From NCBI GenBank assembly GCA_963576735.1, contig OY755176.1, positions 9,905,423-9,969,422 of the forward strand: a DNA stretch of 64,000 bases, given 5' to 3'. Source of the DNA: Bedellia somnulentella. Its lineage: Eukaryota; Arthropoda; Insecta; Lepidoptera; Bedelliidae. The notes beneath the pieces were generated by a model. That model was given only the letters and a program-made list of their open reading frames with translations, had not been told where the DNA came from and did no database searches. A program made the position numbers and the translations under genes. Of this stretch, positions 3,124-61,800 are shown one piece after another. The first letter of the stretch is position 1. The number at the start of each line of letters is the position of its first letter.

Positions 3124-4417
3124 GGTTAGCAAAGTATTGGTATATTTGTGAGCAGAAATATTTAATTGGTAAGCTAAAATTGATAGTTGGACAGCAACTT
3201 GTGTTCAGCAAATATTAATAAATCAGTCTGCAATATATATCATTCTGAACAGCAGTATTTTTTTTTGTACAGCTGTGTATATATCAAAGCTGCAATGAGT
3301 GACCTGTAGTTAATTAAATTTTGGTTAGCACTCAGAGAATAAGCAAAAAAATCAGTTTAGTGCCGCTAAAATTAGTCTAGCAAATAATAAATAAATATCA
3401 TACTTAAAAAGCACTAAATGGGCGCATCACTTACTGATGATTCATTTATTTATTCTCTCTCAGTAAGTAGGTTACTTTTAGTATTATAGCAGAGATATTT
3501 TGATGGAATAATAAAGAAGCTTTGAAATAAGTGTGTGTGTGTGATCTTGTGTGATCTTCAGTTCAGATCTTCATCTTGTGTGATCACTAGTGTGATCTTT
3601 ATATTTTTGCAGAAAAGCATTAGAAGCTGCGTTAAATACATTCTCGTGAGTTCTAGAATGCAACGAATCAACATCATTCAAAATATTATCACGCAAAACC
3701 TTGCTTTTGATCCTTTCAACCCTTTCTTGAATTTTTCTTTAATGCGTGTGTCCAACACATGCGCACTACCACGTGATCTCCAAAAATTTCAAGAAATGCG
3801 TTTTGAATACTTTTAGCAGCATCACAAACCAATACTTTTGGATTCCAAGAAATTTCAAAAATTTCGAATATTTTGTCCTTAAGCCCTTGAAACATCAATT
3901 TGAAGTCTTCTTTTTGTTCATTACTTGAAACCGTTAAATATATAGGATGGAACTTGCGGTTTTGGTCCGTGGTTCCACAGACCAAAATAGGAAAACCCTG
4001 CCAAATGATTTTGTATGTGGCATCTGCATGAACGACACTGGATTTTTTTTGAAATTTCTATCAAATATTTTGTAGAAATAATGAAACGGAAAATGGGACT
4101 TCTTTTTCAATACATACGCAAAACAATTATTTAAATTGCCATCCAAATTTAAAATATGCTATTCAGTCAAAAAAGTTGCGTGTAGAAATGTTTTCTCTGC
4201 TAACCGAATGTATAATCTTGCTGTCCAAGTAATTATTCTGCGGAGTGACTGTTTATTTTGCAGATACATAATAAAACTCGCTACTAGTTTGTGTTTAAAT
4301 TACAGACCATTGTCATGATTATTTACAGAACACGAATTGCAGCCTGATTTTAATTATTGCTAACAAAATCTTTGTATGCTAACCTAATGATTTATTAGCG
4401 GTTATTTCTTGCTAACC
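3124..4417. mobile_element. Probable extent of the MULE element with subterminal motifs
   Basis: The octamer GGTTAGCA occurs at 3124 and 3323 left of the transposase relic. Its reverse complement TGCTAACC occurs at 4198, 4377 and 4410, with a 7-base match at 4358, on the right. Inverted subterminal clusters like this often serve as transposase binding sites in DNA transposons. I could not fix exact termini or a 9-bp target duplication, so the boundaries are only the outermost motifs. Confidence 0.45.
3590..4060 (-). pseudogene. MULE (Mutator-like) transposase relic
   Basis: The minus strand encodes a MULE/FAR1-type DDE transposase core. It begins near HADATYKIIWQGFPIL, continues GTTDQNRKFHP, then VCDAAKSIQNAF and RMCWTHALKKN. 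These match the family pattern of a first catalytic Asp in DATYK, a GTTD-x-x-R-x-FHP strand and an Asp in the D(A/G)AK motif. A frameshift near 3720 moves the downstream part (IQERVERIKSKVLRDNILND) to another frame, so the gene is broken. N-terminal zinc-finger and C-terminal SWIM regions were not found. Family assignment rests on these motifs. Confidence 0.75.
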
Positions 4418-18368: not shown

Positions 18369-18989
18369 CGCAGGCGGATTGTATAATCCGCCGTTTTACA
18401 TTACGGCTAGCCGTTTTTTCGCAAATATTTTCGGACCTCCGATGATGCACCCGAGTATAAGTACGATGCGGCTAAACGTGGGCCGCCTTATTGAAGAACG
18501 TAAACATAACATAAACATAAACGTTCACGCCGAATATCCCCGAAGTGGTTGGCAGAGGTACTAATACTTCTGAACATCACGTGACTTTGTCACCTGGTGT
18601 TCAGAGTACCCACGTTTTGCATGGACAGTGTACTCACGTGATAGGGGGCAGGCCTATCGCCGTTTTGTACGAATACACTGTCACATGACTAAGTACAACT
18701 CAGCCATGTGGGTTTCCTCACGTTGTTTTCCCTCACCGTTAACAACCATGATAAATTAACCACACATATGTCTTTAGAAAAGACAAATTGGTGTAGGCCC
18801 GACCCAGGCATTGAACACTAGTCGTTTGCACGATAACGGAGTGTTCTACCCACTGGGCTATCACGGTATTGAAGAAAGTATCGCAATAAAAATTCGGCTA
18901 ATGCTTTCACCGCTGCATTACAAAAACGGCGCTGTTCCAGAAAACGGCTAGCCGTAATGCAAAACGGCGGATTATACAATCCGCCTGCG
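18369..18989. mobile_element. MITE with 49-bp palindrome-rich inverted repeats
   Basis: Inverted repeats of 49 bp at 18369-18417 and 18941-18989 differ at one position. Each repeat contains two smaller palindromes: GGCGGATTGTATAATCCGCC and ACGGCTAGCCGT. Similarity may extend a further 9 bp outward. No coding capacity and no clear target duplication were found, so the superfamily is unassigned. A SINE-B copy (18499-18866) has inserted near the middle. Confidence 0.8.
18499..18866 (-). mobile_element. SINE-B copy nested in the MITE
   Basis: On the minus strand: head with TAGCCCAGTGGGTAGAAC (A box) and a B-box region, full body, and the (TTATG)n-type tail. A 10-bp duplication TATTGAAGAA flanks it at 18489-18498 and 18867-18876, proving insertion after the MITE. 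Confidence 0.88.
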
Positions 18990-37849: not shown

Positions 37850-40800
37850 CTGAAAATAGGAGAAGAAAAGTTATTGATAAATAAATATCATAATCACTAA
37901 CCAATACTTATGTTGCTATTATTTATCACCTAGAGGCCAACTAGAACATAAACTCGATGTCTAAAAAAAATTGTGTATTATAACGGACTTTAAGGTGTTT
38001 TATAATCAAAATAGAGTAATTAGTTGGTATATACGAGCGACGTGATACAAAGAGAACGATAGAAAAAAAGGGTAGTGTGATATTTAAGTCTAAATTCGCT
38101 TATTAAGCTAAACCTACGTTCACTTGCTACGCTACGCTCACAACTCAGCCATGTGGGTTTCCTCACGAGATTTTTCTTCACTGTTAACCGCCACACAATA
38201 AACCACACATTATGTCTTAAGAAATGACAAATAGGTGTAGGCCCAACCCTGGATTTGAACCCATGACGGACAAAAGTTCCCATCCATTGAGCTATCAGGG
38301 TTGGCGAAGGTGAAATATTGATAATAGTTGGTCTAGATGATATATTGTTTCTTATGGCAAAGTACACGTTGTTAATAAATAAAAGATAAATAAAGGAAAG
38401 AAAAATTTCGACACCGGCGGGGTTCGAACCCGCGACCTCGGGTATACGCCCCCGTCGCTCTGCCAATTGAGCTACAGTGTCAATGGCTTCCAGTGCGAAA
38501 TTCTTCTATCCTTTGTTTGTTTTAAATAAAGAAAAGATAAACATTCAAATTATGTGCTAGTTAGGCGTTCTCAACATTTGCATTCTATCTGAAAAGGTAG
38601 ACAAGTGGCCTTACGAATTTGTAAAAAATTCGGAGGTAGGGAACGCAAACACTAATTAAAAAGTGTAAAACAAACAAAGGATAAAAGAATTTCGCACTGG
38701 AAGCCATTAGCAGAGCGACGGGGGCGTATACCCGAGGTCGCGGGTTCGAACCCCGCCGGTGTCGAAATTTTTCTTTCCTTTATTTATCTTTTATTTATAA
38801 GTAATAATCCCCACTTAGGTTTTCATGTCAAAAACTTTAATTATAAACGTCATTAACATTATAAACGTTGTTAACTATTTATCCCTCAGTCATTCATGTA
38901 TATTTCCACCAAGAATCGGTCTGTATTAGATGTGCCAGTTTATTTACCAGGACTTCAATGCAAATTGCGATTGAAATGATTTGAGCTGAGCGAGTTAGGT
39001 AAGGATTTTTTTAGTGATTATTTCTTAATGGTAGGTTAGATAACGACATGCCCCCATCTACGACACTTAGCAATGTCCACTTGATAACTGTGCCAAATTT
39101 GGGTGAAATCAGTTCTACCGTTCCAGAGGATTTCGATCACAAAGAATTGTGGCCTACCCGCGTGTAATTATAGGACATGCAATCAACGGATGATTTCCGA
39201 TAACTTACCATTAGATTCAGCATTAAAAAATAATGAATCCTCCTTAGAATCTCTTTCACAATTTGTGGCTGATCTTGTGATAGCCAATATTGACCCCTTG
39301 CTCTCTCGAGATACGAAGCAATATCGTCTGGCAGCTTTGCTGTCTCTTGTAACGGGAGTGGTGACTACGAAGGATGCTCCATCTTCGTACCAACCTCCGT
39401 GGCAGGTATATGCTGGAAATAAAAAAAAAGTGTCGGTTTAGAATAGCACTGCTGACCCTTTTCTTGTCCGAGGTTGTCGTAAAAGGAGATTAAGAGTAGG
39501 GGCTGTTTAAGTGATTGTTAGGCAATGTGGCTGGAGACCCAAAGCCAATCATAGTTTATTTTGCAAACTTTACCCTTTTCAACTCCGAAAGAGGCTGTGG
39601 TATTACCAATTCCGAAGCTCTGGCTACCCTTTAACCTAACCAGTAACTAGTAACATACATAATGTTAGGGGCATAGTTGTGACAATTATTGCAAGGTTTA
39701 ATTCTATAATAAAAACAAAAAGATTATGTTTCTACTAATTTCCCCTTGTAGAATAAAGCGCAGTTTGACTTCGAATTAATAAGATCTATGTATGCGATAG
39801 ATCCCCATAGATGTACTAAAAACGTTAGATAGGTTATTTACGAGGAAACCAGCGCTTACGAGTGGCACCGATTACAGCAGATCTACGCACACCACTAGAA
39901 ATATATCCAAACAACACACCAAGAAATACATTTGAAATGTAAGCGAGATAGCACATCTTATAGCAAGTGCTAAAAAGAGGTAAACATATTTTCTCTGTAC
40001 CGAACTTTCTTTTTCTCTGTACTATACTGTAAAGAATAATTTAGATCTATACACACGATATACCTAATTTATTATAATTAAAGCGTTGTAAATTTATAAT
40101 ACTTACGAATGATAATCATTTTAGTAGTTTATTATAGTTTGTGCAAAATCTCATCACACACGACGGCATTCTCGATTATTTTGAAAAACAAACATGCCAA
40201 AACAGGTGTACGATTGCGACGGCAGTTAGTGTGCGACTAAAGTCAGATGAGCCATTTAGCCTATGTTTTAAGTGCCACTTATGAGCGCGCATAACTTATC
40301 TACGGTTTTTTATTAGGTCATCTATGTAGATCCCAGTTTTGCTCGTCAGGGTAGTTTTTGCTTTTTATTTCTATAACATAACATAAACATAAACGTTCAC
40401 GCCGAATATCCCCGAAGGGGTTGGCAGAGGTACTAATACTCGTTTATTTCTATGTAGCTCTTAAAATCCGTTTTCCTCTTTGAGCCTTAAAAGAAGCTCA
40501 TTAAGCCTTGCATTGCGTATGACGCGTTATTACTTTAGTATTACGGTAAAAGAACATTCTTATATTTTTACACTTTATTATTCCGATAAAACTACATCTC
40601 TATGATGCTAGTTATAAAATTTTGATAGAAAATGTCTTCTTACCTGTAACAACTTCCTTAGTCTCGCATTTAGAATAAAAATCCATATTCTTGGCGGAGT
40701 TACATCCTACTTCCAATCTATTGAACTCGTTACCATAACAATCTTCTTTCTCTACATCATACACTTCTCTTCTACTCCTTAAAGTTGGTAGATCTGATAC

Positions 40801-43800: not shown

Positions 43801-46800
43801 GGGCGTATACCCGAGGTCGCGGGTTCGATCCCCGCCGGTGTCGAAATTTTTCTTTCCTTTATTTATTAATTCATAAGAACATAATAAAACTATCCTGTCA
43901 CACATACGAATCAAACAAGTGAAGCTATTTATGAGGCCGACTTTATGAGGAATTCACCATTACAGCCTACCTAATGTCCCCATCCAGGGTATCTAGCAAA
44001 CCCTAAATATAATGATTTGGCGGTAGATCCTCACGAAGGCTCAGTGCCGGTTGGCAGACTAATACTGCCGCAATGGTAGCTGGGACTGACGATGGCTTAA
44101 CGTGCCTTCCGGAGCATGCAATCATCTATATTTATCATCGTATAATCAGGTGATCAGCCTGGAATATCCTTAAATCTCACTCAAGACGTTGACGCCGTAT
44201 AGCCTCGAAGGGCTTGGCAGAGGTACTAATACTTCTGAGCATCACGTGAAATTGCCACTTGGTGTTCAGAGTACTCACGTTTTGCTTGGACAGTGTACTC
44301 ACGTGATAGGGGGCAGGCCTAGCGCCGTTCTGTACGAATACACTGTCACATGACTAAGTACAACATAGCCATGTGGGTTTCCTCATGATGTTTTCCCTCA
44401 CCATTATCAATTATTATATAATTTAATTACATAATATGACTTTAGAACGGAGAAATAGGTTGAGGCCTTGAATCTCATTAATTGAATTTGTCCGTTTACC
44501 CTCCGGGACCCAAACTCGAGACTTCCGTATTATGAACCGAACGCTCTATCGCTAGACCAAAAAAGGCAGTTATGAGGATGATGCGGGATAAAAATATTTA
44601 TATTTGTCGGTTTTTCTTACTTATAATAAAGAACATACCGATATTATTAGTCTTCTCATACACAAAACAGCGATATCTATCTTCGTTGCTCGTTGCATGA
44701 TTGTGGTGAATTTTTCCGACGAGGAATCTAAGGCTCCCTTCTTTCCAAGTTGCTAAGCATTCCAGTTCTTCCACTGAAAAACATACATTTATAAATTAAT
44801 CAATATCAAGTATTTGTTACTTTCCTAAAATCTTGGTTTCTATATGGTAAAGAGCTTGCTTCGATGTTTGTGGCAATGAATAAATCCAGTGGATTATATT
44901 AGTATTTGTTGAGGCAAATATTGGAGAGAGATAAGATGACAGTGACAACATTAATTTAATTAAAAATCTGAAAATAATAATTATATATAATAAAAAGGGG
45001 TAGCGACATTCTAAGCCGGCACTACACGGCAAAGGCGGCTAAGTCTACACGGGTGTCGTAAGAGGCGACTAAGGGTATTGTGGCTTTTTATTGGATTTTT
45101 GGGCGATGCGGTTAGAGATCCATTACCAAAAACCCTTATTTTTACCAGCTTTTCCCCACTCAACTTCCAAAAGTGGCTGAGGAATTTATAATTCCTTAGC
45201 TCTGGCTACCACTTCTAGGGAAATACAGCCGTGAGTATATGTATGTATACATAATATTAACGACTAAATAAATAATAAAATAAATTTCAGTATAAAACAT
45301 AACATATAACATAACATAAACGTTCACGCCGAATATCCCCGAAGGGGTTGGCAGAGGTACTAATTCTTCTGAAAATTACGTGACTTTGTCACCTGGTGTT
45401 CAGAGTACCCACGTTTTGCATGGACAGTGTACTCACGTGATAAGGGGCAGGCCTATCGCCGTTTTGTACGAATAAACTGTCACATGACTAAGTACAACTC
45501 ACCCATGTGGATTTCCTCACGTTTTCCCTCACTGTTAACAACCACGATAAATTAACCACACATATGTCTTTAGAAAAGACAAATTGGTGTAGGCCCGACC
45601 CAGGATTTGAACACTAGTCGTTTGCACGATAACCGAGTGTTCTACCCACTGGGCTATCACGGTTGTAAGTAGGAACAATTGGCGGTCTTATCTCCATTAT
45701 AAAAGCGATTTCTTCCAGGCAACCCTTGGATGGTAAAATCAATCAATAAAAAAAAATGTTGGGTAGATCATCAATAAAAGGTAGGAACAAATTATTTATT
45801 TACAAACTTATACAAGCATACACCATTTATTCACGCTATAAGGGTAGGTAGCTACTATCAATCGCCCGCTGTATATAATTAAGAATATTGTTATCCTATT
45901 CGTCGCCTCTTCTACACGTTTTCTATAGATATTAATTCATTGACTTTTAAGCCGTAAAATACGGCTTTAAACAGAACTGTAGAGAAATTGCCAATTCCGA
46001 AGTTCTGCTACAAAAATAAATAAAACGCAAAATAACATAAACATAAACGTTCACGCCGAATATCCCCGAAGGGGTTGGCAGAGGTACTAATACTTCTGAA
46101 CATCACGCGACTTTGTCACCTGGTGTTCAGAGTTCAAATAAAACACATTTATAACAAAGCACTGAATACATGATTGGTTACTATACTGAAACACGTATAA
46201 ATTCTATGCCTATTTATAGCTCCAAAGCGCAACACAAACTAAATTTAGTGTGACATGAATACAGCATTTGCTATCTAATTATTGTACAATCGTGTCTAAG
46301 TATTCTGATCTAATATGAATAGGACGTACTTGGTAGACTGTGAAATTATTCCGAGAATTGTAGGAAAGGAGTTATGCATTCTTTATAAGATAGGAAGACT
46401 GTGATTTGCTTTTAATAGTTGACATAGTGGGTAATGAATATCATTTTGTATTTGCATTTTGTATCAGGTAAGGTCTGCAACGCAATTAAGTAGTAAACGT
46501 AGTAACATAAATTATGATTTTTTTTACATACATACATACATACATATTCTCACGCCGTTAGTTCCCATTGGGGTAGGCAGAGACTATCGATCGCCACTTT
46601 GTACGATCCTGGCAAACCTCTCTAGCTTCATTCACATCCATCAATCTTTTCATACATGCTCTTTTATTCTTCGTACTTCGGACACCTGCCTTTTTGAGCA
46701 CATTTTCTATTTGATCTAAATGTGTCCTCCGAGGTCGTCCTCTACTAACATTACCTTCCACATTGGCTCTATAGATCTCTTTCACCACTTTACTGTCATC

Positions 46801-49800
46801 CATCCTATCTATGTGCCCAAACCATCTCAACATTCCTTTTTCTATCTTTCTTACAATATCATCTTTTACACCACACCTTTCACGAATCACATCATTCCTC
46901 ACACGATCACATAACCTTACATTACAAACTTTTCTGAGGGATCTCATTTCTACTGCATTTACTCTGCTTTCATGCTTCTTCTGCCACACCCAACATTCAC
47001 TGCCATACATAAGCGTAGGAACGAGGACAGCATCATGCACAGCCATTCGGGCCTTTTCGGACACCGATTGACTAGACATGAGACTATCCAGTGCTCCATT
47101 TACCGCATTACCCTTTTTTACTCTTCTTTCAATGTCTTCATCACACTTTCCATCCCTAGTAAACAAACTTCCCAGATATACAAACTCTTTCACTTGTTCC
47201 ACTTTCTTACCATTGATCTCAATCACGCATTCAAGCATATTCTCCTCTCTCTCGAAAACCATGGTTTTGGTTTTATCCACATTCACTCTCATTCCTTTTC
47301 TTTCAAACGACGCACATGCAATATTCATCATCTCTTGCAACTCTTCAACCGACGATGCAAGTAACACTTGATCATCACCATATAAGAGGCATTTGATGAC
47401 GAATCCACCCATTCTCAGTCCATAATCACTTTCACGCAACTCTATCAGACAGTCATCCATGAACAAGTTGAAGAGCCACGGAGAAGCTACACATCCCTGT
47501 CGGACACCCCTAGAGATACCGAACCAGTCCGTGTTTTCCCCGTTTATTCTTACACATGCACTAGAATCCTCATAGAGTGATACCAATGCACGTATAAGTT
47601 GGCTCCCCAAGCCGAACTTGGATAACACCTCCCACAAATACTTCCTTACCACCCTATCATACGCCTTCTCTAAATCTATGAAGGAGCAATACACCTTTCG
47701 ATTCTTGGCTAAGAACTTTTCAGTGATGCTCCTTAACGAGAAGATTTGATCCATACATCCCATTCCCTTTCTAAATCCTGCTTGCACATCCCAAATTTTG
47801 TCATCTGTTTCATTCATCACTCTTTCAATCAATACCTTTGCATTCAATTTACCGACAACACTGAGTAGGCTGATTCCGCGGTAGTTTTTAGCTTCCTGGT
47901 GTGACCCTTTTCCTTTATATAAGGGCACAATAACTGCCCTGCACCAATCTCGTGGTACTTTACCACTCGACCAACACTTTTGAAAAAGGAAGTACAGCCA
48001 GGAAGCCACCAACCCTTTACCAGCCCTCAGCATTTCGATACTTATCCTATCATACCCTGCCGCTTTCCCTACTTTCATACTTTTCAATGCTTTCATTACT
48101 TCTTCCATACTAATCTCACTGTCACTACTGTCACCCAATGCCTCATTCCAGTCAACATTGCTGCCAATTGGCGAAGAAATAGGTGAATCCTCTTTTTCAA
48201 AGAGTCCCTCAAAATAGTTCTTCCATACTCGTCTTATGCTACTTTCATCCGTCGCCAATTCACCCTGTTCATCTCTCACAACATTCACTCTCGTGTTTTG
48301 GGAAACTCCCTTTTCTTTCCGGATATATTTCCAGAACAACTTTTGGTTATTCCGGAAATTATCAGAGAGTTTCCTCTCACACCATTCTATCAGATCACGC
48401 TTTTTTTTTTCTATTTTCTTCTTAACCTCATTCTTAACTCTCTTATATTCATCTTCACTATTCTTCACTACATCATCTGTTACTCTCGCATCCATTCGTT
48501 TACTAGCTTTAATCGCTAGTAAATCTAACCAAGCTTTCTTCTTATCTCCAACTGCCTCTTTCACATCTTTATCCCACCAACTTGTTGGTGGTCTATTTGT
48601 TCTTTTACTCAATCCACATACTTCCGTCGCACATTCAACCATTGACGATTTGAGCACATCCCATACTTCTTCTATTTCCAATTCATCCTTCATCTTCACG
48701 CAACTTAGCCTGTCGTCCAATTTCTTCATATATTCATCTCTAATATTTTCATCCTCTTCCAATTTCTCCACTTTTATTCTCGCAAAATCAGTTGTTGACA
48801 CTTTGGCCCTGTGACGCCAACGCTTGCACAGTCCCCTCAATCGTGATAACACGAGGAAGTGATCTGTGCCAACGTTAATGCCCCTGTAGACTCTGGTGTC
48901 AACAACCTTTGCTCTTAGCCTTTCATCCACTATCACAAAATCTATCATACTTCTCTCGCTTCCCCTCTGTCTAGTGTACATATGGATATCTTTGTGTTCA
49001 AACAACGTGTTTGTAACACAAAGATTCCTCCCCAAACATACATCAATCACTTTCTCCCCATTCTCGTTCACTCTTTTATCACCAAACTTTCCTAAAACTC
49101 TTTCACAACCGTTGCGTGACACCCCAACCCAACCATTAAAATCTCCTAACATAACAATTCTCTCATTCTGATCACACCCATTCGCAACATCGTCTAACAA
49201 ATTCCAAAACTCCTCCCTCTCGGATTGTGATTTGGACATGTCCGGCGCATACACGCAAATTATGCGCATCCGGACCAGCCATACTTTCACCTTTATCCAT
49301 AGGAGCCTTGGACTCACACATGCATAATCTTTCATGCACTTAGCCATCCTTTCAGATATAAGAAGTCCCACGCCTTGGCAAGCTCTGTCACTCTCGGCAA
49401 CTCCCGACCAGATAGCTGTAAATGGGCCAAGTTGTGAAACCTCTTTTTCCTTGCGCTTCGTTTCATTCACACACAGAAAATCTAGGTTTCTTTCTTCCAT
49501 AATCAAACATACTTCATCTAATTTTTCATGCATCCCTCCACACACATTCATCGTACCAAAGCGGGTCTCTTCAGCCCACTTTTCGCCCCGCGAGGAACTA
49601 CGGCGTGATAGGTGGCGAGCCACATCGCCGCCATCGTGTTTTATTTTTGTTTCGAAACACATTTGGACCCCACGAAAAGCAAGGGAAATAAACTGTCCGC
49701 CTAGCCAGAGCCCCGCTTGACTAGGTAAGGTTACTTAGTACCCGGAGTGCACCAAGCTCCGGGACGGCGGCACGCTAGAGACCAGGCTCACCCCTGGCCA

Positions 49801-52800
49801 CGCATCCCTCGGCACGGCAGACCTTGGATTGGTGTAAGGGCGAAGATGGAAAAGCCCTGTTCCCTTAGTCGACTCCTACGAAACACCCACGGGACGAGAT
49901 GGGGTAGTGCTATTCTATGCCGACACTACACAGCCACACACACATTTTTTTTACCGTCAATTAAAATTGAAAAAGACAGCTTTTTGTGATACCGCTATTT
50001 ATTTTTGTAACATAACATAACATAAACGTTCACGCCGAATATCCCCGAAGGGGTTGGCAGAGGTACTAATACTTCTGAACATCACGTGACTTTGTCACCT
50101 GGTGTTCAGAGTACCCACGTTTTGCATGGACAGTGTACTCACGTGACAGGGGGCAGGCCTATCGCCGTTTTGTACGAATACACTGTGACATGACTAAGTA
50201 CAACTCAGCCATGTGGGTTTCCTCACGATGTTTTCCCTCACCGTTAACAACCATGATAAATTAACCACACATATGTTAGAAAATAGTCAATTTGTAACTT
50301 TAAACTGTCTCGAAAACGAATTCAAATGAGCTATGTTGGGTTCAAAATGAATTAAATTATAAAATTAGTGGCCAGTTTCCGTTTAAAAAGAATGAATCTA
50401 AATGTATTTCAAAACTCTCGCTTCCGGCGCCACTTTCGCGTGTTTTTGGTGGTAGGGAAGTGGCGGGGGAAGGACGAAATGACAGCTGTCTTGAGGCAGG
50501 CGAAGCGGCATTGCTGGCATTCGTACTGAGGCTCTCAAACAAACCAGTCGTTACCATTAGCTTGAATATTATGTTATTATTATTAACTTGTGATTTTGTA
50601 GAAGAAAATAAATAGCAGAACAATATTATTAAGTTTTATTTTCAGAGTCGTTCCTAAAAGGTCAGTAATTTCAATAGTTCAGAAGTGTTACGACTGTTAA
50701 ATCGCCCACTGGTATGTACAATTTATGTTATTAGTATAGTATTTTTCTTGTCAAATGTTTAGCTAACCTATTAGCACACGCGTTTTGCCAGGGCTACTCT
50801 CTGGAAACGCATCATTACTTATACATTCACAAATATTCACGCGTTTTGCCAGGGCTACTCTCTGGAAACGCATCATTACTTATACATTCACAAATATTCA
50901 CGCGTTTTGCCAGGGCTACTCTCTGGAAACGCATCATTACTTATACATTCACAAATATTCACGCGTTTTGCCAGGGCTACTCTCTGGAAACGCACCATTA
51001 CTCATAAATTCACAAATATTCACGCGTTTTGCCAGGGCTACTCTCTGGAAACGCACCATTACTCATACATTCACAAATATTCACGCGTTTTGCCAGGGCT
51101 ACTCTCTGGAAACGCACCACTACTCATTTATTCACAAATTTTCACGCGCATTACCAGAACTACCCTCTCGAAAATTAGTTACTCACGAAAACATTACCAA
51201 GCACTTATTCATTTTGCCAGGGTTAGCTGATCTTTAGAATGTTTTTTTTTTGGACGGTATGAAGTAGACGTAATATTTATATAAATGTATAATTCTAAAT
51301 ATTTGGATGAGTGTCGGGCTAGCATAGTTTTACACCATTTCTTAACTTGATATTAATGCAATTCAAATAAGAAAGTAGGACTTAAATATTTAAGGTGATG
51401 CGGTTAGCAACCCGTCGTTATCACTATTATATACCATCTTCGCGCTCAAAGTGAGAGACAGAGTGTAATGCTAAAGATCTGTCTGCCCTTTTATATAAAC
51501 ATAGCTGTGAATATCTGGGTTAAATATTTTATTTAATAAATTATTAAATTATTATGCTTACGTGAGTCTCGTTTGTTGTCGGTTAAGAATGGTACTAACT
51601 TTCTTATTTACCGCCTGTTATCTTTTACATCTTTTACCGGTTGGGTATTTTATGGTTTTTTATATTTTATTTCCAAATATCAAGTTTTGAATTAATTGTC
51701 ATGTATAAACTATGGCTAACCTCGTATCAAGGTGTATTTCTTTTGATTCAATGTCTGTAATTTGTTTTGTTGTTGTATTTTGTGTATGTATGTGAGTGTC
51801 AGCTGAAATAGCATTATACCGTTACTTATTTGATTTTAATGGAATACAATTTATATTATTAGGGATTTAAATTAGCAACTTATCACTAGTATCCGCTTCA
51901 TGTACCATCGTCACGCTCAGAGTAGGAGACAGACTTGGTGATTCCAAAGATCTGTCTATCCCTTTATTTTGAATATAGGCCTTAGTAGTTAAATTAAGAA
52001 TTCATTAGTTCCATTCCAAAATTATTGTTTTGGATTTACGACGTGTATGCAATGTCGGTTAAGAATGATATTAACCTACTTTTTATATCCTGTTAGCTAC
52101 CTTTTATATATTTTACCGCTGAAGACATTTTATAGCGTATTCTACTTACTAAATGCAAACAAATGAATACATTTTTATTCCATTTTATTTTATTATAAAG
52201 TTGCAATATTTTAACGTACTCTTGTGTGTTTACATTATGATAGCTAGAAGTTTCTAATCTGGATTTTTCAACCTATCCTCACCTAACCTTTCCTTTTCAC
52301 GAACGACTTTAAACGACTGTTTACTATTCTTTTAATTAAATTAGGCCAAAAAAAATAATATGACTGATACAAACGATACACTACTTAGGTTGACACCACC
52401 GTTACCAAACTTAGCCACAGGACGAAGCTTAACGACGATTAGGAGAGAGGGTACCTCATCGCTAGGTGTGACTCTTAGTCAATCCGTCAATCTGGACAAA
52501 TAAAGATCAAAGGCCGGACATGCTGTTGGATGAATAAGTTAAGCTGTTGACCAATCTTTGTACGTCTTAGCACTATTGTAGGGTAACGTTTGTTATGGAA
52601 TGCGGTTGTGGTATGGTCGCGTGATTGAGAAAGGATTGGCTGTTGTAGTTGCTATTGTAATTGACTTTTAAACTAGTGGAAGGTTGAAAGATTAACTCCA
52701 ATGTTTCAAAAATGTCACAGAGTCTAGCGGCTTGCAGAATACTCATAAAACATGAGTTTTAAATGTTTGTAATGTGATATTTTGTTTGTTGCTTATTCCA

Positions 52801-55800
52801 ATAATAAGAAAAAATTAATGAGAAAGCAAGTTAGTTTTCTGTATTTTATGCCACGACAGTTTTCCAAATGTTATAATCGTGATAGTGTATCTATTTGGTC
52901 TAAATGACCCTAGAGTTTTTAAAATCTTTTATAATGGCTATTATTTGAGTCAAAAACACTTACATGCTGTTTATTATTGTTAAATTTATGTTAAACGTTG
53001 TTTCCTTTCTCTCTCGCATCACTATGCCTCGAACGTAGTTTATGGAATGAATGAGTAACATAATTGTACAGTTTTAAATATTTATGTAATGGTGATAGGT
53101 AAATATTATTTCTATGCGCGATATTTATTTTTGTTTTATGACTAATCTTTTTAAATTATTTCATATATGTCTTATCGTTGCATTAATTTAATAACTTATA
53201 ATTACAATCAACCTTTTAATCACGAATTTCGTATCAAAATTTTTATTTTCGCTTTTAAAATCATCAATTAAATTTTAAACTTATTAATATATTTAGAAAT
53301 TATATTAAATGTGATATATTTTCGAGCAATAATTTGATATCGTAAAAGATTCGCAGTTTGTGAATTTTACCGTTTTACGTTAAATAAGATTTTATGATTT
53401 TCAATTTGAATTATTTATTTTCATTGATTGCCATTGCACAACTCTTTTGAGTGTTCCTAAATGCCAAGAGAGTAAAAAAATGCAACGATATGCATCATAT
53501 TTTCATGATAGGATGATCACAAGTATGATATAGGTGTGACTGCCGTTAGTGGTTAGTTATTGATAAATAGTTAAATTATTAGGAAACAAAATTACGCGCT
53601 CAAAATAGTATTTGGGTAGTTCCGCAAATGAGATTAAAAGTGGATGTTGTTTCTATTTAAGAATACATCTGTCAAGAGTTTTGTCTTCCTTTATGTTACG
53701 GTGATAAAATAATGTTCCTTCGTTCTTTCACCAGTTTTAATTGCAAAAATTAATTATTTTCTTCTAATTAATATTTTTGATTCGAACGACTGTGAATAAA
53801 ACATATTTTTTTGGAGGAGAATTGAAACAATTTATCGTGTATATATTGTAAAATAAATCTCATTTATCTAAGGAATGACACAAAATTCAGCGACAAGGGA
53901 ATATTCAGACATTTTCCTTTTTTTTTTCAACTTTAACTTACCAAAGTGGAAAGATTAGAATGGGGATAATATTCCATACTACTTATCCTCATTATATACT
54001 TTTTAATTATATACTTATTCCACTGTAGGTATTAAAAAAATGCGTAGACCTAATGTTCCATGTTACAATATAAGTAGTTTTTGTTTTTGATTCATCTTCT
54101 TTGGAACATTGGAAACTATATTAGTTTTATTGAATTTAAATTGTTATCTCTTAAAGATTTATTTTTGCGAAAAAGGAACCTTATATTTATTGTTATCGTC
54201 GCAATCGTAACGTTTTCTATTATTTATAATGTAATTATCATTGTTTTATTTTATCGTATTTATGGATTTGGTTAAGCGAAACCGGTACGGAATCACCAAA
54301 GCGAAGTTAATTATAGGGTTTTTGAATCGCGATAGCAAATCGTGTAAAGTTTCCTAGGGGACTTTTTATTTTTTTACTAACATATTTTTAAATTTGAATT
54401 AATCAGCTACTAAAGTATTAACAAATTTCTCACGTAGATAAAGCGGGGGCGTTTTTTTTACCTAATCATACAAATAAGTAGCACCATATTTTCTATGAAC
54501 ATAAACACTCAAAAACACTTTATTGGCTACTATAAACTGGATTCTTAATTCTTGATCATGTTGTTAGATTTTGATAATTTTGTGTATGTTTAACGTAATA
54601 CATACAGAACACACTAACGGGCTTCTTAAACCATACCATTACGTGGTTTAACAACTTATTGACATTGCTCAGGACCTCAGTGTAATGGTTCATAAATTCT
54701 ACAATAAATAATGCGTACAACATTTCGAAATGTAGTTTGATACACTGATTTCATTTGCCGTTGAAGGTTAACATACTACTAGATGCCTGACAAATATCAA
54801 TATACTGCTCCGAACCAGTACGCAAAGATTGTTTTTTAGATAAACTGTTACCCTGTTCTGTTGAACAGGAAATACACTCATTGGAATAACGCTGGGAAAG
54901 TATAATCGTGTCTTAGATTACCAATAATAACTATCAAACCTAATAAAAGCTCGCATAAACAGTATTCTAAGGGCCCTCTGTGGACCCCAGATTATAAGAG
55001 TTATAAGTGCAAAATCCTCAGTCAAAACATGGGACTGTACGTTATTTCATCGGCGTTCATTCCAATGAGGGTACAGTCGCAGAATATAAAAGGTATTTGC
55101 AAATTTTTACAAATTAATTGAAGCGCATAGTCTTAAAACAAGCAAGTTTCAACGTTATACTGAGCTAGCAACACCAATAGAAAAATATCTAGTAAATATT
55201 TTTTTAAAAATCTATAGCATAATTGGTATCCCCGTTTCGATGTAGCATTTGTAATTTATACGAAGAATAAAAACCAAAATAAGTGTAGGGAAAAGTAAAT
55301 TTACAAATGAATCTCCGATACAGTTTTCATAAATATGCAAACATTTTGTTTCTAGCTTAAATATATTTAAATGATAAAAATCATGCTTAATATAGATGAA
55401 TTTATAAATATGATTGTGTGTAAGTGGAGTGTGTAAATATGAATGACATGACGTGACAAGCGACGAGTCGTTGGAATGGCTCGCTGTCTATGACAAGAAA
55501 TCAAAGATATTACAGAACTGATACTGTAGATTTCCGATGGATTGTTAATTGATAGATATTTTTACTGAACAAAATCCACCAGAGTCTAAATAATGTAATT
55601 AATAAGAATATACTTAATTCTCTAATCCTCTTTGTTATTTAGTGATTATTTTTGTTTGATATTGTTTAGAAGTGATGTGAGTCGTTATTGTGTCACCTCA
55701 TAGTTTGATAGAGCCGTGTGGGGGCGCCTGTCCCTGCAGGAGTATGAATGTTCTAGTATTAATTGTAATTGTAAATAAGCTCTATCAAAACGTGAGGCGA

Positions 55801-58800
55801 CCTATTTGCGGTAGGTGGCGCGGGATGAAGCGATCGACAGAGATAGCAATACGCCAACTCGCTCTAACGAAGACGAACCAGCAACCCAACAAACGCAGAA
55901 GGTTGTCTTCACAATGCTATTTACGATTCTGTTGGAGCGACGGAGCCATATGAAACAAGAACGGCAATTCAAGCCTGTCAAAAGTTGTATTGAAAACAAT
56001 CAGCACAAAATGAAGATAAACTTCGATAAAAACCGAGCTCCTACAGTTCTGTTTAATAAAGGGGATCTTGTTATGATCCCAAATCATCATAAGCCAAGCG
56101 ATGTAAAGAGTAAAAAAAAACTATGCCCAAAATTTAGAGGCCCATACAGGATAGCAGCAATTTTGTATAATGACCGGTATGAGGTCTCAAGTATTGCAGG
56201 TCACTCAAAACGTAAATACAAAAGTATTTATCCGGCCGATCAACTAAAACGCTGGATAACTATCTTCTATCCCCGATACAGACGTTGATACCGACGATGA
56301 CAGTAATGAATTAAACCAGAACGCTGGTGATATTTTTCACAATTAAAATAAATTAAAAACAAAATTACAATGCCCGAAACCATATTCGAAAAGCGGATTA
56401 ATTTGACCTAACTATATTAACTCATTTACTTTTTCAAATGACAATGACATTACCCATTCCTCCTTAGTCCTTCCAGAACCCAATTTTTGTTTCAGAAGTT
56501 TTGGTGAATGGGAGCCAGTAATAAAAAGATAGCTCCTCAAATTAATCGGAAAGTGCAAGCGGTACTCACTAATGCGAAGGATGCCGAAGCGCAAGTGGTA
56601 CTCACTAATGTGAAGGATGCCAAAGCGCAAGCGGTACTCGCTACTGTGAAGGATGCCGAAGCGCTAGCACTGTTCTCAGTTATAAAACAGGCCAAAGTGC
56701 AAGCGGTACTCACTAATGCGAAGGATGCCGAAGCGCAAGTGGTACTCACTAATGTGAAGGATGCCAAAGCGCAAGCGGTACTCGCTACTGTGAAGGATGC
56801 CGAAGCGCTAGCACTGTTCTCAGTTATAAAACAGGCCAAAGTGCAAGCGGTACTCACTAATGCGAAGGATGCCGAAGCGCAAGTGGTACTCACTAATGTG
56901 AAGGATGCCAAAGCGCAAGCGGTACTCGCTACTGTGAAGGATGCCGAAGCGCTAGCACTGTTCTCAGTTAGAAAACAGGCCAAAGTGCAAGCGGTACTCA
57001 CTAATGCGAAGGATGCCGAAGCGCAAGTGGTACTCACTAATGTGAAGGATGCCAAAGCGCAAGCGGTACTCGCTACTGTGAAGGATGCCGAAGCGCTAGC
57101 ACTGTTCTCAGTTATAAAACAGGCCAAAGTGCAAGCGGTACTCACTAATGCGAAGGATGCCGAAGCGCAAGTGGTACTCACTAATGTGAAGGATGCCAAA
57201 GCGCAAGCGGTACTCGCTACTGTGAAGGATGCCGAAGCGCTAGCACTGTTCTCAGTTATAAAACAGGCCAAAGTGCAAGCGGTACTCACTAATGCGAAGG
57301 ATGCCGAAGCGCAAGTGGTACTCACTAATGTGAAGGATGCCAAAGCGCAAGCGGTACTCGCTACTGTGAAGGATGCCGAAGCGCTAGCACTGTTCTCAGT
57401 TAGAAAACAGGCCAAAGTGCAAGCGGTACTCACTAATGCGAAGGATGCCGAAGCGCAAGTGGTACTCACTAATGTGAAGGATGCCAAAGCGCAAGCGGTA
57501 CTCGCTACTGTGAAGGATGCCGAAGCGCTAGCACTGTTCTCAGTTATAAAACAGGCCAAAGTGCAAGCGGTACTCACTAATGCGAAGGATGCCGAAGCGC
57601 AAGTGGTACTCACTAATGTGAAGGATGCCAAAGCGCAAGCGGTACTCGCTACTGTGAAGGATGCCGAAGCACTAGCAGCTCTCTATGTTATGAAATACAC
57701 CGAAGCGCAAGTGGTACCATTAACAATAAGGTTTTTTTTTATTTACATTAATATACAGGCAAAAATCCTCTATTTCTAACTAGGATAACAAACCTACCAT
57801 AAATCTATTGTAAACCATTTTTTACAATTTTATTGATTAAAAGTTTCACGTAGAAAGTTTCTAAATTTATTAATGCAATGCAATAATTTCAGGTTACTGA
57901 TTCCTGCCTGGCTCGCTGAAACGGATCATTTTCGAATAGAAGATTCAGAAGTATTAAATCATTATGGATAAAACTAAGAATAAGTTATATAAGTAGCACA
58001 AGTTAAAATTTATTTTGAAATTTAAACATATCATAACATAACATAAACGTTCACGCCGTTTATCCCCGAAGGGGTTGGCAGAGATACCAATACTCCTGAA
58101 CTCGCATGGCAAGCGCCATCTAGTTTCCAGAGAAGGTACCCACGTTTTGCTTAGACAGTGTACTCACGTGATAGGGGGCAGGCCTATCGCCGAAGCCACT
58201 AAATTTAACACTGCCATGTTAAATTTAAACATATGTTAAATAGTCGATATTTTTTTTTAATTACTTATTAGAAACCACCGGACGGGTCGCGAGCCCGCGG
58301 CCGTCCCGTACACACTTGGCGCCGGAGCGTGAAGAGCGAGCTGCGAGCGGCGGGACTGAGTTGGAGTGCGGCCAGGGAAGTCGCGGCAGACAGGAAGGCG
58401 TGGCGGGAGCTTGTGCAGGCCCTGTGCACCAGTGGGGTGCCATAGGACGACAACAACAACAACAACTATTGCTCTTTGTTATCATTTTAATTGAAAATAT
58501 AAAATAAATAAATTGTCAGGTAGAGCTAGGAATAAGTAACTTAAGTTAAAACTGATTTTCAAAGTAAATCCTGCCTTGTTAAAATAAGCATTTCTTAAAT
58601 TGTTAATTTTCTTTGTTAAGTAACTATTATTATTTCTATATACTTTTGTATTTTTTTTTTATTTTTTTTAGTTGTGTTTTGTTGTATGAAATATGATATA
58701 AGTTGTGCAGATAAACGTCTAACGAACGATAAATGTATTTAAGATGATAAGATAATACATTAATATATAATGGTATACTTGCACGAAAATTAAAACGAAT

Positions 58801-61800
58801 GTTATGCCTCGACCAATTACGTAATATTTGACAAAACTGAAAATATAAATAATTATGTTACATATATTTCATTTGTTAATGTATGAGGACATAGAAGTTG
58901 TAAGCTCGAATGGCCGAAAAGGAATGAGGACATTCCTGCCTCAGGACGGCCGTCTGTTAGAAAATAGTCAATTTGTAACTTTAAACTGTCTCGAAAACGA
59001 ATTCAAATGAGCTATGTTGGGTTCAAAATGAATTAAATTATAAAATTAGTGGCCAGTTTCCGTTTAAAAAGAATGAATCTAAATGTATTTCAAAACTCTC
59101 GCTTCCGGCGCCACTTTCGCGTGTTTTTGGTGGTAGGGAAGTGGCGGGGGAAGGACGAAATGACAGCTGTCTTGAGGCAGGCGAAGCGGCATTGCTGGCA
59201 TTCGTACTGAGGCTCTCAAACAAACCAGTCGTTACCATTAGCTTGAATATTATGTTATTATTATTAACTTGTGATTTTGTAGAAGAAAATAAATAGCAGA
59301 ACAATATTATTAAGTTTTATTTTCAGAGTCGTTCCTAAAAGGTCAGTAATTTCAATACATATGTCTTTTTTAGAAAAGACAAATTGGTGTAGGCCTGACC
59401 CAGGATTTGAACAATAGTCGTTTGCACGATAACCGAGTGTTCTACCCACTGGGCTATCACGGTTGCATATTTTTGTGTAACTGTAATTATTTGCACATTT
59501 CTTTTGAGCATTCATGTTTGTTTAGAGTATGCAATTTGACGACTTTAAAGAAATACATGAATATTACAGAAATTTCATTCATATCTAACTAATGAAAAAA
59601 ACTCATGTAAGAGCTTTCATAATTGTTATTAACATAGACTTTATTATGTTGTATTTCATATTCTTGGATAACAACCATAAGGGTAATTTTTGAGTAACTT
59701 TCATTAATTTTAACTGAATATCTCCACTCGTTTCCGTTTAAAACGGTCTTGACACATAATATACTGTAAAAAGCAATAAACACTGAACCCGCCGGGCCGC
59801 CGACATTGCCCTACGACACAACGGCCTGTGTTGAAAGAATCATGTCTAACCTATGTATGAAAACTAGACCACCGACATAAAGTTGCCGACATATGTCGAC
59901 GGCCCGGCACGGTCGGGCTCAGTGTGTATTGCGCATAAGGCCGACAGATAACCAAATTTACAACATATGATTGTGTAAAAAGTTTTATGTAAAAAGGTTT
60001 TAATAAAGAGATTAAAGCGTTTGATGTGTTTTTTTCTGCAATCTTAGCATTAAGAAAGAAATTAACTTAAATGCAGAAATATTTAATTGGTATTAAAAAC
60101 GGTTTTAGTGCTATTCTGTTGAAATAGTTTGGCTAACTGGATCTAAATAGCTAATATATTAATACAATATTTCTCTTACCAGTGCTTTCAGACCCGTAGA
60201 CATCTGGGCAGGCTTGATAATTAAGAAGAAGTCTGGAATCGTCAGTGCAACTTTCTATCGAAGATACAGGACTCTTACAGTCACCATGACCTCTGAAAAA
60301 TCACAATGTGTTTATCGTAATGTTTTGTACAATCTGAAACAGGGTTCATAAATACATACATATACTCACACCGTTAGTTACCTTTGGGGTAGAGACTATC
60401 GATCCCCACTTTGTACGATCTTGGCATACATCTCTAGCTTCGTTCACATCCATCAATCTTCTCATACATGCTCTTTTATTCTTTTGGTTCACCTTTCCTA
60501 AAGTAAGATAAAATATATACTTATATCCAGCAGTTGCATCAATATGCTTGCGATCATTGTGTTCGTAAACACAAATCTTCTAACTCCCACCACACAACTC
60601 ATTTTAATGATATGAATATGCATGGTCGGTTTCATGATATTAACAATAATTAGATGTATATTTTTAAATAATGCATGTGTTAGGGTTTAGAAGGCATAAT
60701 CATGAGTGTGATTTTATTGCTGTGAACTATGTTGAAAATCTGAAATATTTTTTAGGATATATAATCCAATTCCAGGCTGACGGCTGGAAATCCATCACCA
60801 ATTCTTCTTTGTTTTGCAATCTTTTTCTTACTCTCACTCCACTCCACTCAATTATTTTTTTCCACTATTTGCATTTATAGCCATGAGTATATTTATATAT
60901 CAAAGCAGAGACAACACAGGTTATGAATAAATTAACTTAAACTAGTGAGATGTTACCTGTTATAAGTGAAAGTGAATGGACCCTTCAAGGGACAGTCAAC
61001 TGGCTCAGCGTTTTCCCTGAACATGGAGTAGAGAAGAGCATCTCCGGTGATTAGCGAACAAAGGTGGGGCAACGCTTCACGACGGTGGCAAAACGCTGTA
61101 AGGGAAAGTAGATATACTATAACTATTTAGTGCATAAATTATATTTTATATAATTAAGTTACTTTTTTAATTGCGCCGTGGAATATTGTAATATAATGTT
61201 TTTTAATGCATGTGCTCATTTATAGACCTTTATTGTCCTTGATTAAGGCATATATAAAAATTCATTTTACTAAACTGTTTTTTTTCGTTTGACACTAAAA
61301 ACTTAAGCTCTTTGCCATCAGAGAAGAGTTTTTATACCAAAACATAATACAATAAATTAACTAATTTTTACTCGAATAAATTATGCCAATATTATAGCCT
61401 GGTTTGTTAGCTAAATGACAACGTGTTAAAATTTGTAAAACGAATAAGGGTCAAAATTACCAAAACAGTAGAATATTATGCTTATTTTGTATAAGTATGC
61501 ACTCACTTTCTTTGTACTGAAGAACATTTTTGTGTTTCTCATGCATCACAACGCAACGGTAACATCCTTTCCTGAAATAATTAAAACAATTCTTATTTAA
61601 AATCCTGCTTCATTTTACGTATTCTAGCGTACCTAGTAGGGGTACTACCTACTGAGTTCTATTGAATTTTGTCTGTTCTTAAGATGCTATTCTGTAGAAG
61701 AAACCGAGTTATTTGATTATTCTACTGCCCTGTACATAATTGGAGCAATCACACATAAAAATTTGACAAATTTAATTAATAGCTTCACATAATATACCGA

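What the first reader, a model, noticed from the sequence alone, without database searches (positions are those of the whole stretch)
50274..59357. Large LTR-bounded element with no gag-pol and a mixed payload
The 403-bp direct repeats look identical and flank 8.28 kb. The unit splits a SINE whose own 9-bp duplication is still intact on both outer sides, so a single recent insertion event is well supported. Yet the interior lacks gag, protease, RT and RNase H. It carries an integrase end, two unrelated tandem-repeat systems, and SINE and LINE scraps. A non-autonomous element this large that has recently moved must borrow its machinery, and it seems to accumulate foreign sequence.
Basis: partly seen in the sequence, partly recalled or inferred. 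Interest (0 to 1): 0.88.

Follow-up and report, generated by a model that had tools for sequence, protein, structure and literature searches.

The report
Jumping element that borrows a relative's machinery
This is a real, recently inserted insect retrotransposon that has lost nearly all its protein genes, belongs to a family seen at 28 places in the same genome, and very probably copies itself with the proteins of a rare full-length relative found in that genome.

Summary
Two identical 403-bp LTRs flank 8,278 bp and sit inside a SINE. The LTR element has a 4-bp TSD (CATA), and the SINE still has its own 9-bp TSD. No gag-pol was found in the interior apart from about 155 bp of gag start and the integrase end.

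The window's own genome (549 Mb, lepidopteran by its relatives) shows what it is. Probes from its non-coding core hit 28 places. In 14 copies with readable ends, 11 LTR pairs have no difference and 13 have matching 4-bp TSDs.

A full-length partner was found at two places. Its LTRs are 93-94% identical to the window's and it has a gag-pol frame (uninterrupted in one copy). Both tandem arrays belong to it too. So much of the "payload" is the partner's own untranslated DNA. Foreign are a 3.35-kb core that replaced 4.25 kb of gag-pol, plus a SINE and a probable LINE end that one subfamily shares.

This is a LARD-type non-autonomous Ty3/Gypsy-like element, presumably mobilised in trans (inferred): a new member of a known kind. 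The helper/parasite pair in a lepidopteran and the 28:2 ratio give it moderate interest.

The parts
50000..50008 (.). left copy of the 9-bp TSD (TATTTTTGT) of the host SINE
   Evidence: sequence
50009..50273 (-). 3' part of the interrupted tRNA-derived SINE (tRNA-like head recognised by eye)
   Evidence: unbroken copies at 18503-18867 and 45306-45665
50270..50273 (.). left TSD (CATA) of the LTR element
50274..50676 (+). 5' LTR (TGTTAG...CAATA)
   Evidence: 403/403 identical to the 3' LTR
50677..50713 (+). leader / presumed primer-binding region, identical 37/37 to the C9 partner
50777..51173 (+). 61-bp tandem array (6.5 units), part of the 5' UTR and shared with the C14 partner
51174..52356 (+). 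rest of the 1.6-kb 5' UTR, shared with the C14 partner (about 78-91% by 300-bp tile)
52357..52516 (+). start of gag (88% to the partner; ATG at 52360, stop after 47 codons)
52517..55870 (+). 3.35-kb non-coding core (GC 30%) in place of 4.25 kb of gag-pol; the probed part (53000-55870) was found only in this family apart from a 70-bp match
55871..56343 (+). integrase C-terminal end and following sequence, 94-95% DNA identity to the partner
56550..57677 (+). 144-bp tandem array (7.8 units), also in both partners with about 3 units
58018..58028 (.). left TSD (AAATTTAAACA) of the inner SINE
   Evidence: filled site read, empty sites
58029..58200 (-). truncated SINE of the same family as the outer one; absent from the subfamily B copies read and both partners
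58201..58210 (.). right TSD (AAATTTAACA) of the inner SINE, one A shorter
58271..58465 (+). inserted fragment with an (ACA)n tail that reads as a LINE 3' end; no clear TSD; absent from the subfamily B copies read and both partners
   Evidence: the label LINE is my reading of its tail and frame, not a library match
58466..58954 (+). 3' region up to the LTR, including a purine-rich stretch and the 10-bp palindrome GACGGCCGTC next to the LTR
58955..59357 (+). 3' LTR
59358..59361 (.). right TSD (CATA) of the LTR element
59362..59467 (-). 5' (tRNA-like head) part of the interrupted SINE
59468..59476 (.). right copy of the SINE's 9-bp TSD
   Evidence: sequence

Best explanation
It is a LARD-type non-autonomous LTR retrotransposon. 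It arose when most of gag-pol of a Ty3/Gypsy-like element was replaced by 3.35 kb of non-coding DNA. It kept the parts expected to act in cis: LTRs, leader, start of gag, 3' end. Its RNA is transcribed from its own LTR, packaged, reverse transcribed and integrated by proteins of a full-length relative such as the rare one in the same genome. Shown: shared ends, lack of gag-pol in the copies read, many recent insertions with TSDs, and a partner with a gag-pol frame. Inferred: trans-mobilisation by that partner, the order of events, and any role of the retained gag start in packaging.
For: LTR search: 71 candidates, 40 scored, 40 matches. Core probes hit 28 places: 27, 27, union 28. Of 14 copies with both outer ends readable, 13 have matching 4-bp TSDs and 11 have LTR pairs with no difference. 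In the parts read of 18 copies (window plus 17 others) blastn finds no match to partner gag-pol beyond its first 199 bases after the LTR, up to the integrase end. Partner C9 (L039): LTR 94%, TSD GTAG/GTAG, 1632-codon frame with zinc knuckle, RT, RNase H and integrase domains; the RT piece is nearest to Ty3 entries among solved structures. Partner C14: TSD ATAG/ATAG, no LTR substitution, 99.4% to C9 over 6.5 kb, has the 1.6-kb 5' UTR with the 61-bp array. A partner gag probe matches these two places and one weak 68% piece (3 of 3 candidates).
Against: Window and partner LTRs differ by 6-7%, so the actual helper might be another copy or an element not in this assembly. No transcript, particle or mobilisation data. 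No Pfam protease or capsid match was found in the C9 frame at E 0.01, so its completeness is not shown. The leader has no standard TGG primer-binding site. The search tool scores only the best candidates, so counts are lower bounds. One readable copy of 14 (C8) has a mismatched TSD (TTAG/GTAG).
Confidence: 0.88

Rival explanations
1. The element is mobilised mainly by other Ty3/Gypsy-like families in the genome rather than by the partner found here.
For: The integrase search shows many further families, some with long open frames (134 matches, 150 of 381 candidates scored). LTRs of partner and window differ by 6-7%.
Against: The two partners share leader, LTR, arrays and 3' region with the element. 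Outside this family and its partners the listed integrase ends are at most 56% identical; LTRs and leaders of those other families were not compared.
Confidence: 0.12
2. An ordinary decayed provirus in which gag-pol eroded by mutation.
For: Traces of gag start and integrase end remain.
Against: No DNA match to the partner, and no tblastn match of partner pieces in the window, between the gag start and the integrase end; the same core is shared at 28 places with identical LTRs in 11 of 14 readable pairs.
Confidence: 0.02
3. The 403-bp repeats are an assembly or segmental duplication, not LTRs.
For: One pair of copies (C20) looks like a segmental duplication.
Against: Different target sites, 4-bp TSDs in 13 of 14, split SINE with intact outer TSD.
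Confidence: 0.01
4. The 144-bp array encodes a useful repeat protein (423 aa frame).
For: Frame open through the array; an ATG-started frame is seen in 6 of the 15 fetched stretches scanned, all subfamily A. Three Pfam families pass their cut-off on it (MgtE_N best, 3.6e-15).
Against: No homologue among 7993 scored candidates; opposite strand nearly as open; the Pfam families are unrelated to each other, as expected of a repetitive query; the frames listed for subfamily B do not begin with that ATG.
Confidence: 0.05

Closest known systems
LARDs (large retrotransposon derivatives; Sukkula in grasses)
   Same: LTR element with a core domain and no protein, assumed to be mobilised in trans (PMC7215508, passages seen).
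   Different: Described from plants in the passages I read; here a lepidopteran, with much of the partner's own UTRs still present.
Dasheng with RIRE2, Spip with RIRE3, Squiq with RIRE8 (rice)
   Same: A LARD paired with an autonomous counterpart of high LTR identity (PMC1940013, passages seen; the Dasheng paper itself is not held).
   Different: Plant versus insect; here the partner has only two places.
cqUNK non-autonomous LTR elements of Culex quinquefasciatus (38 families)
   Same: Insect, many of several kb, tandem repeats between LTRs, no coding sequence, LTRs over 98% identical (PMC3286476, section 14 read in full; other passages).
   Different: The authors could relate them to no known active element; here a partner is found, and it carries both arrays. 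Most TSDs in their table are 5 bp, here 4 bp.
TRIMs, e.g. PbTRIM in an ant
   Same: Non-autonomous LTR element in an insect (PMC3532108, search listing and start of abstract only).
   Different: TRIMs are small; this is 9.1 kb.

Membership tests
LARD | two LTRs with TSD and an internal region of several kb | tested here: met
   403-bp LTRs, CATA TSD, 8,278-bp interior
LARD | no functional gag-pol | tested here: met
   (18 of 23 interior frames); only gag start and integrase end remain
LARD | internal core shared among many copies | tested here: met
   28 places
LARD | primer-binding site and polypurine tract | tested here: inconclusive
   leader identical to the C9 partner's but with no TGG start; a purine-rich stretch lies about 30 bp from the 3' LTR (read)
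LARD | mobilised in trans by a gag-pol-bearing partner | not testable with these tools
   partner present; mobilisation not observed
Ty3/Gypsy-like (partner) | RT then RNase H then integrase, RT nearest Ty3 | tested here: met
Ty3/Gypsy-like (partner) | recognisable Gag capsid and protease | tested here: inconclusive
   only a zinc knuckle in the gag part; no capsid or protease Pfam match at E 0.01
TRIM | small overall size | tested here: not met
   9,084 bp

The most novel reading that the evidence does not exclude
A long-lived parasite of a retrotransposon. The core may act as filler that keeps the RNA near the helper's length (9,084 bp here, about 9,276 bp for the C14 partner from positions). 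The lineage split into at least two subfamilies, both with recent insertions, while its helper was found at only two places, much as defective interfering genomes outnumber their helper. Against the filler part: LTR-to-LTR lengths of the other paired copies run from about 7.8 to 15.3 kb, the longest with nested elements, so any length control is loose.
Probability: 0.15. Interest if true: 0.6.

Novelty: new member of a known kind. Interest (0 to 1): 0.45.

Why it matters
Insect LTR elements with tandem repeats and no genes were reported in Culex without any partner (PMC3286476). Here both tandem arrays are traced to a gag-pol-bearing partner in the same genome, which offers a natural explanation for such elements. 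The ratio found (2 partner places against 28) also makes competition between helper and parasite testable in populations.

Tried and rejected
The 144-bp array frame was tried as a protein: no homologue, and the Pfam hits, three above cut-off, look like repeat artefacts. The BEL/Pao frame in the C8 copy was tried as a possible helper and rejected: it is a nested element with its own 197-bp LTRs. A donor for the core was sought with two probes covering 53000-55870 (52517-52999 was not probed): family copies match, plus one 70-bp match at C3:12891440 whose meaning is unclear. A probe of the 5' UTR did not complete. Self-priming or a tRNA-Leu primer was considered from memory only and not tested. 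TE-LNCR of Spodoptera was looked at and set aside: a 2-kb consensus said to lack structural elements for classing it (PMC3184123, outline with abstract and passages). Literature searches; no title in the listed rows names this family, which is not proof of absence.

Full report
What is there. Positions 50274-50676 and 58955-59357 are identical (403/403) and bound 8,278 bp. The unit lies in a tRNA-derived SINE on the minus strand. Its 9-bp TSD is intact outside (50000-50008, 59468-59476). The two SINE halves overlap by 4 bp on two unbroken, closely similar copies of the SINE in the same window, which gives the LTR element's TSD, CATA.

Host. The integrase end (55815-56285) matches three proteins, two of them named: Parnassius apollo and Scirpophaga incertulas. 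The window lies in G000:C7 of a 548.9-Mb genome in 486 contigs. The host is therefore very probably a lepidopteran; the species is not known.

Family. The LTR has 71 candidate places, 40 scored and matched. I fetched 20 stretches covering 17 further copies. The interior is shared along its length. The core probe 53000-54500 hits 27 family places plus one 70-bp match elsewhere (43 matches, 32 of 32 candidates scored). The probe 54500-55870 hits 27 places (33 matches, 29 of 29 candidates). The union is 28 places, some of them partial copies. Two of these (C20) look like a segmental duplication, and the two on C42 have identical scores in opposite orientation and may be another, so independent insertions may be about 26.

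Recent movement. In 14 copies, window included, both outer ends could be read. Thirteen have matching 4-bp TSDs: CATA, CATA, CCTG, AACA, AACC, AAAG, AACC, GAAT, TAAC, ATCT, GTGA, TTAT, TATC. The C8 copy does not (TTAG/GTAG). Eleven LTR pairs have no difference; the others have 1 (plus a gap), 2 and 4 substitutions. Left out of this count: the C20 pair (duplication), C278 and C3:18855771 (one LTR in the stretch). With a butterfly mutation rate recalled from memory (2.9e-9 per site per generation) the mean age is about 2e5 generations, to be taken as rough.

The partner. The integrase end also hits C9:17910222 (93% identity, 1632-codon open frame) and C14:10082603 (92%, 934-codon frame). The C9 stretch (L039) has a 403-bp 5' LTR 94% identical to the window's, TSD GTAG/GTAG, a 3' LTR with two insertions but no substitution, a leader identical to the window's over 37 bases, then gag-pol, then the 144-bp array and 3' region. 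Domains found by pieces: zinc knuckle, RT, RNase H, integrase H2C2, rve, and the SH3 end below cut-off; no capsid or protease match at E 0.01. The RT piece is nearest to Ty3 entries among solved structures (one of the two best rows is named Ty3, the other I know as Ty3 from memory) and has many insect relatives (753 proteins among 7994 scored, best 120 listed). The C14 copy is 99.4% identical to C9 over 6.5 kb, has TSD ATAG/ATAG and LTRs with no substitution (one 12-bp indel; 3' LTR 93% to the window's), its gag-pol is split over three frames, and it carries the 1.6-kb 5' UTR with the 61-bp array that C9 lacks. A partner gag probe matches only these two places, plus one weak 68% piece (3 of 3 candidates).

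What was replaced. Against the partner, the window element keeps LTR, leader, 5' UTR, about 155 bp of gag start, then differs for 3,355 bp (GC 30%) where the partner has 4,248 bp of gag-pol (GC 39%), and rejoins at the integrase end. No long matching sequence is visible at the two junctions. In the parts read of the 18 copies blastn finds no match to partner gag-pol beyond its first 199 bases (the stretch of C3:18855771 begins inside the core, so its 5' part was not seen).

Later gains. Subfamily A (window-like, about 97-99.5%) carries the inner SINE and the probable LINE end: 12 of 12 A stretches where the region could be measured, window included. Subfamily B (C20 pair, C42, C22, C8; about 94%) and both partners lack them. 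Five of five B stretches that span the site show it unfilled, with TSD AAATTTAA(A)CA for the SINE and no clear TSD for the LINE end. B copies in turn have about 570 bp at element position 3908 that A lacks; gain or loss is not settled. A tree of 16 rows groups the 10 A rows with support 100/99; the root is by midpoint only and the bootstrap had not settled. Array length varies: by motif counts 61-bp units 5 to 11, 144-bp units 1 to 8 among stretches that hold the array. Individual copies have further nested insertions, such as a BEL/Pao element with 197-bp LTRs in C8 and a Pif1-domain frame in C42.

Mechanism. The anatomy is that of a natural vector: cis ends kept, genes lost. I judge trans-mobilisation by the partner type most likely (0.88). 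Retention of gag start may serve packaging, as in retroviruses (established knowledge, not tested here), though its identity to the partner (88%) is no higher than that of neighbouring parts. The primer is unresolved. LTR-to-LTR lengths of the paired copies vary from about 7.8 to 15.3 kb, so strict length control is not indicated.

Known or new. LARD/partner pairs are known in rice, and gene-less tandem-repeat LTR elements are known in Culex without partners. This is a new member of a known kind.

Noticed in passing
46561-49734 (minus): Uninterrupted 1058-codon LINE frame with endonuclease and RT domains, its 5' end about 270 bp left of the SINE; strong GC skew over the same stretch.
   Followed up: partly
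L019 (C16:1512499): A second copy of the element is also inserted in the same SINE family, at another position (flanks; SINE match). With SINEs this common it may be chance.
   Followed up: no
58912-58954: Short inverted repeats next to the 3' LTR, including the palindrome GACGGCCGTC directly beside it, which the C9 partner also has.
   Followed up: no
51429-52118: Old duplication of about 220 bp at 470 bp spacing (67% identity) inside the 5' UTR.
   Followed up: no
54237-54306; L046:441-510: A 70-bp piece of the core recurs once elsewhere (C3:12891440, 97%), the only trace of the probed core outside the family.
   Followed up: partly
C20:6746296-6765203: Two copies in tandem with shared flank, apparently a segmental duplication of the element.
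   Followed up: partly
L039:7977-8566: About 590-bp insertion with strongly palindromic ends inside the 3' LTR of the C9 partner.
   Followed up: no
38408-38482 (minus): tRNA gene of unclear anticodon.
   Followed up: no
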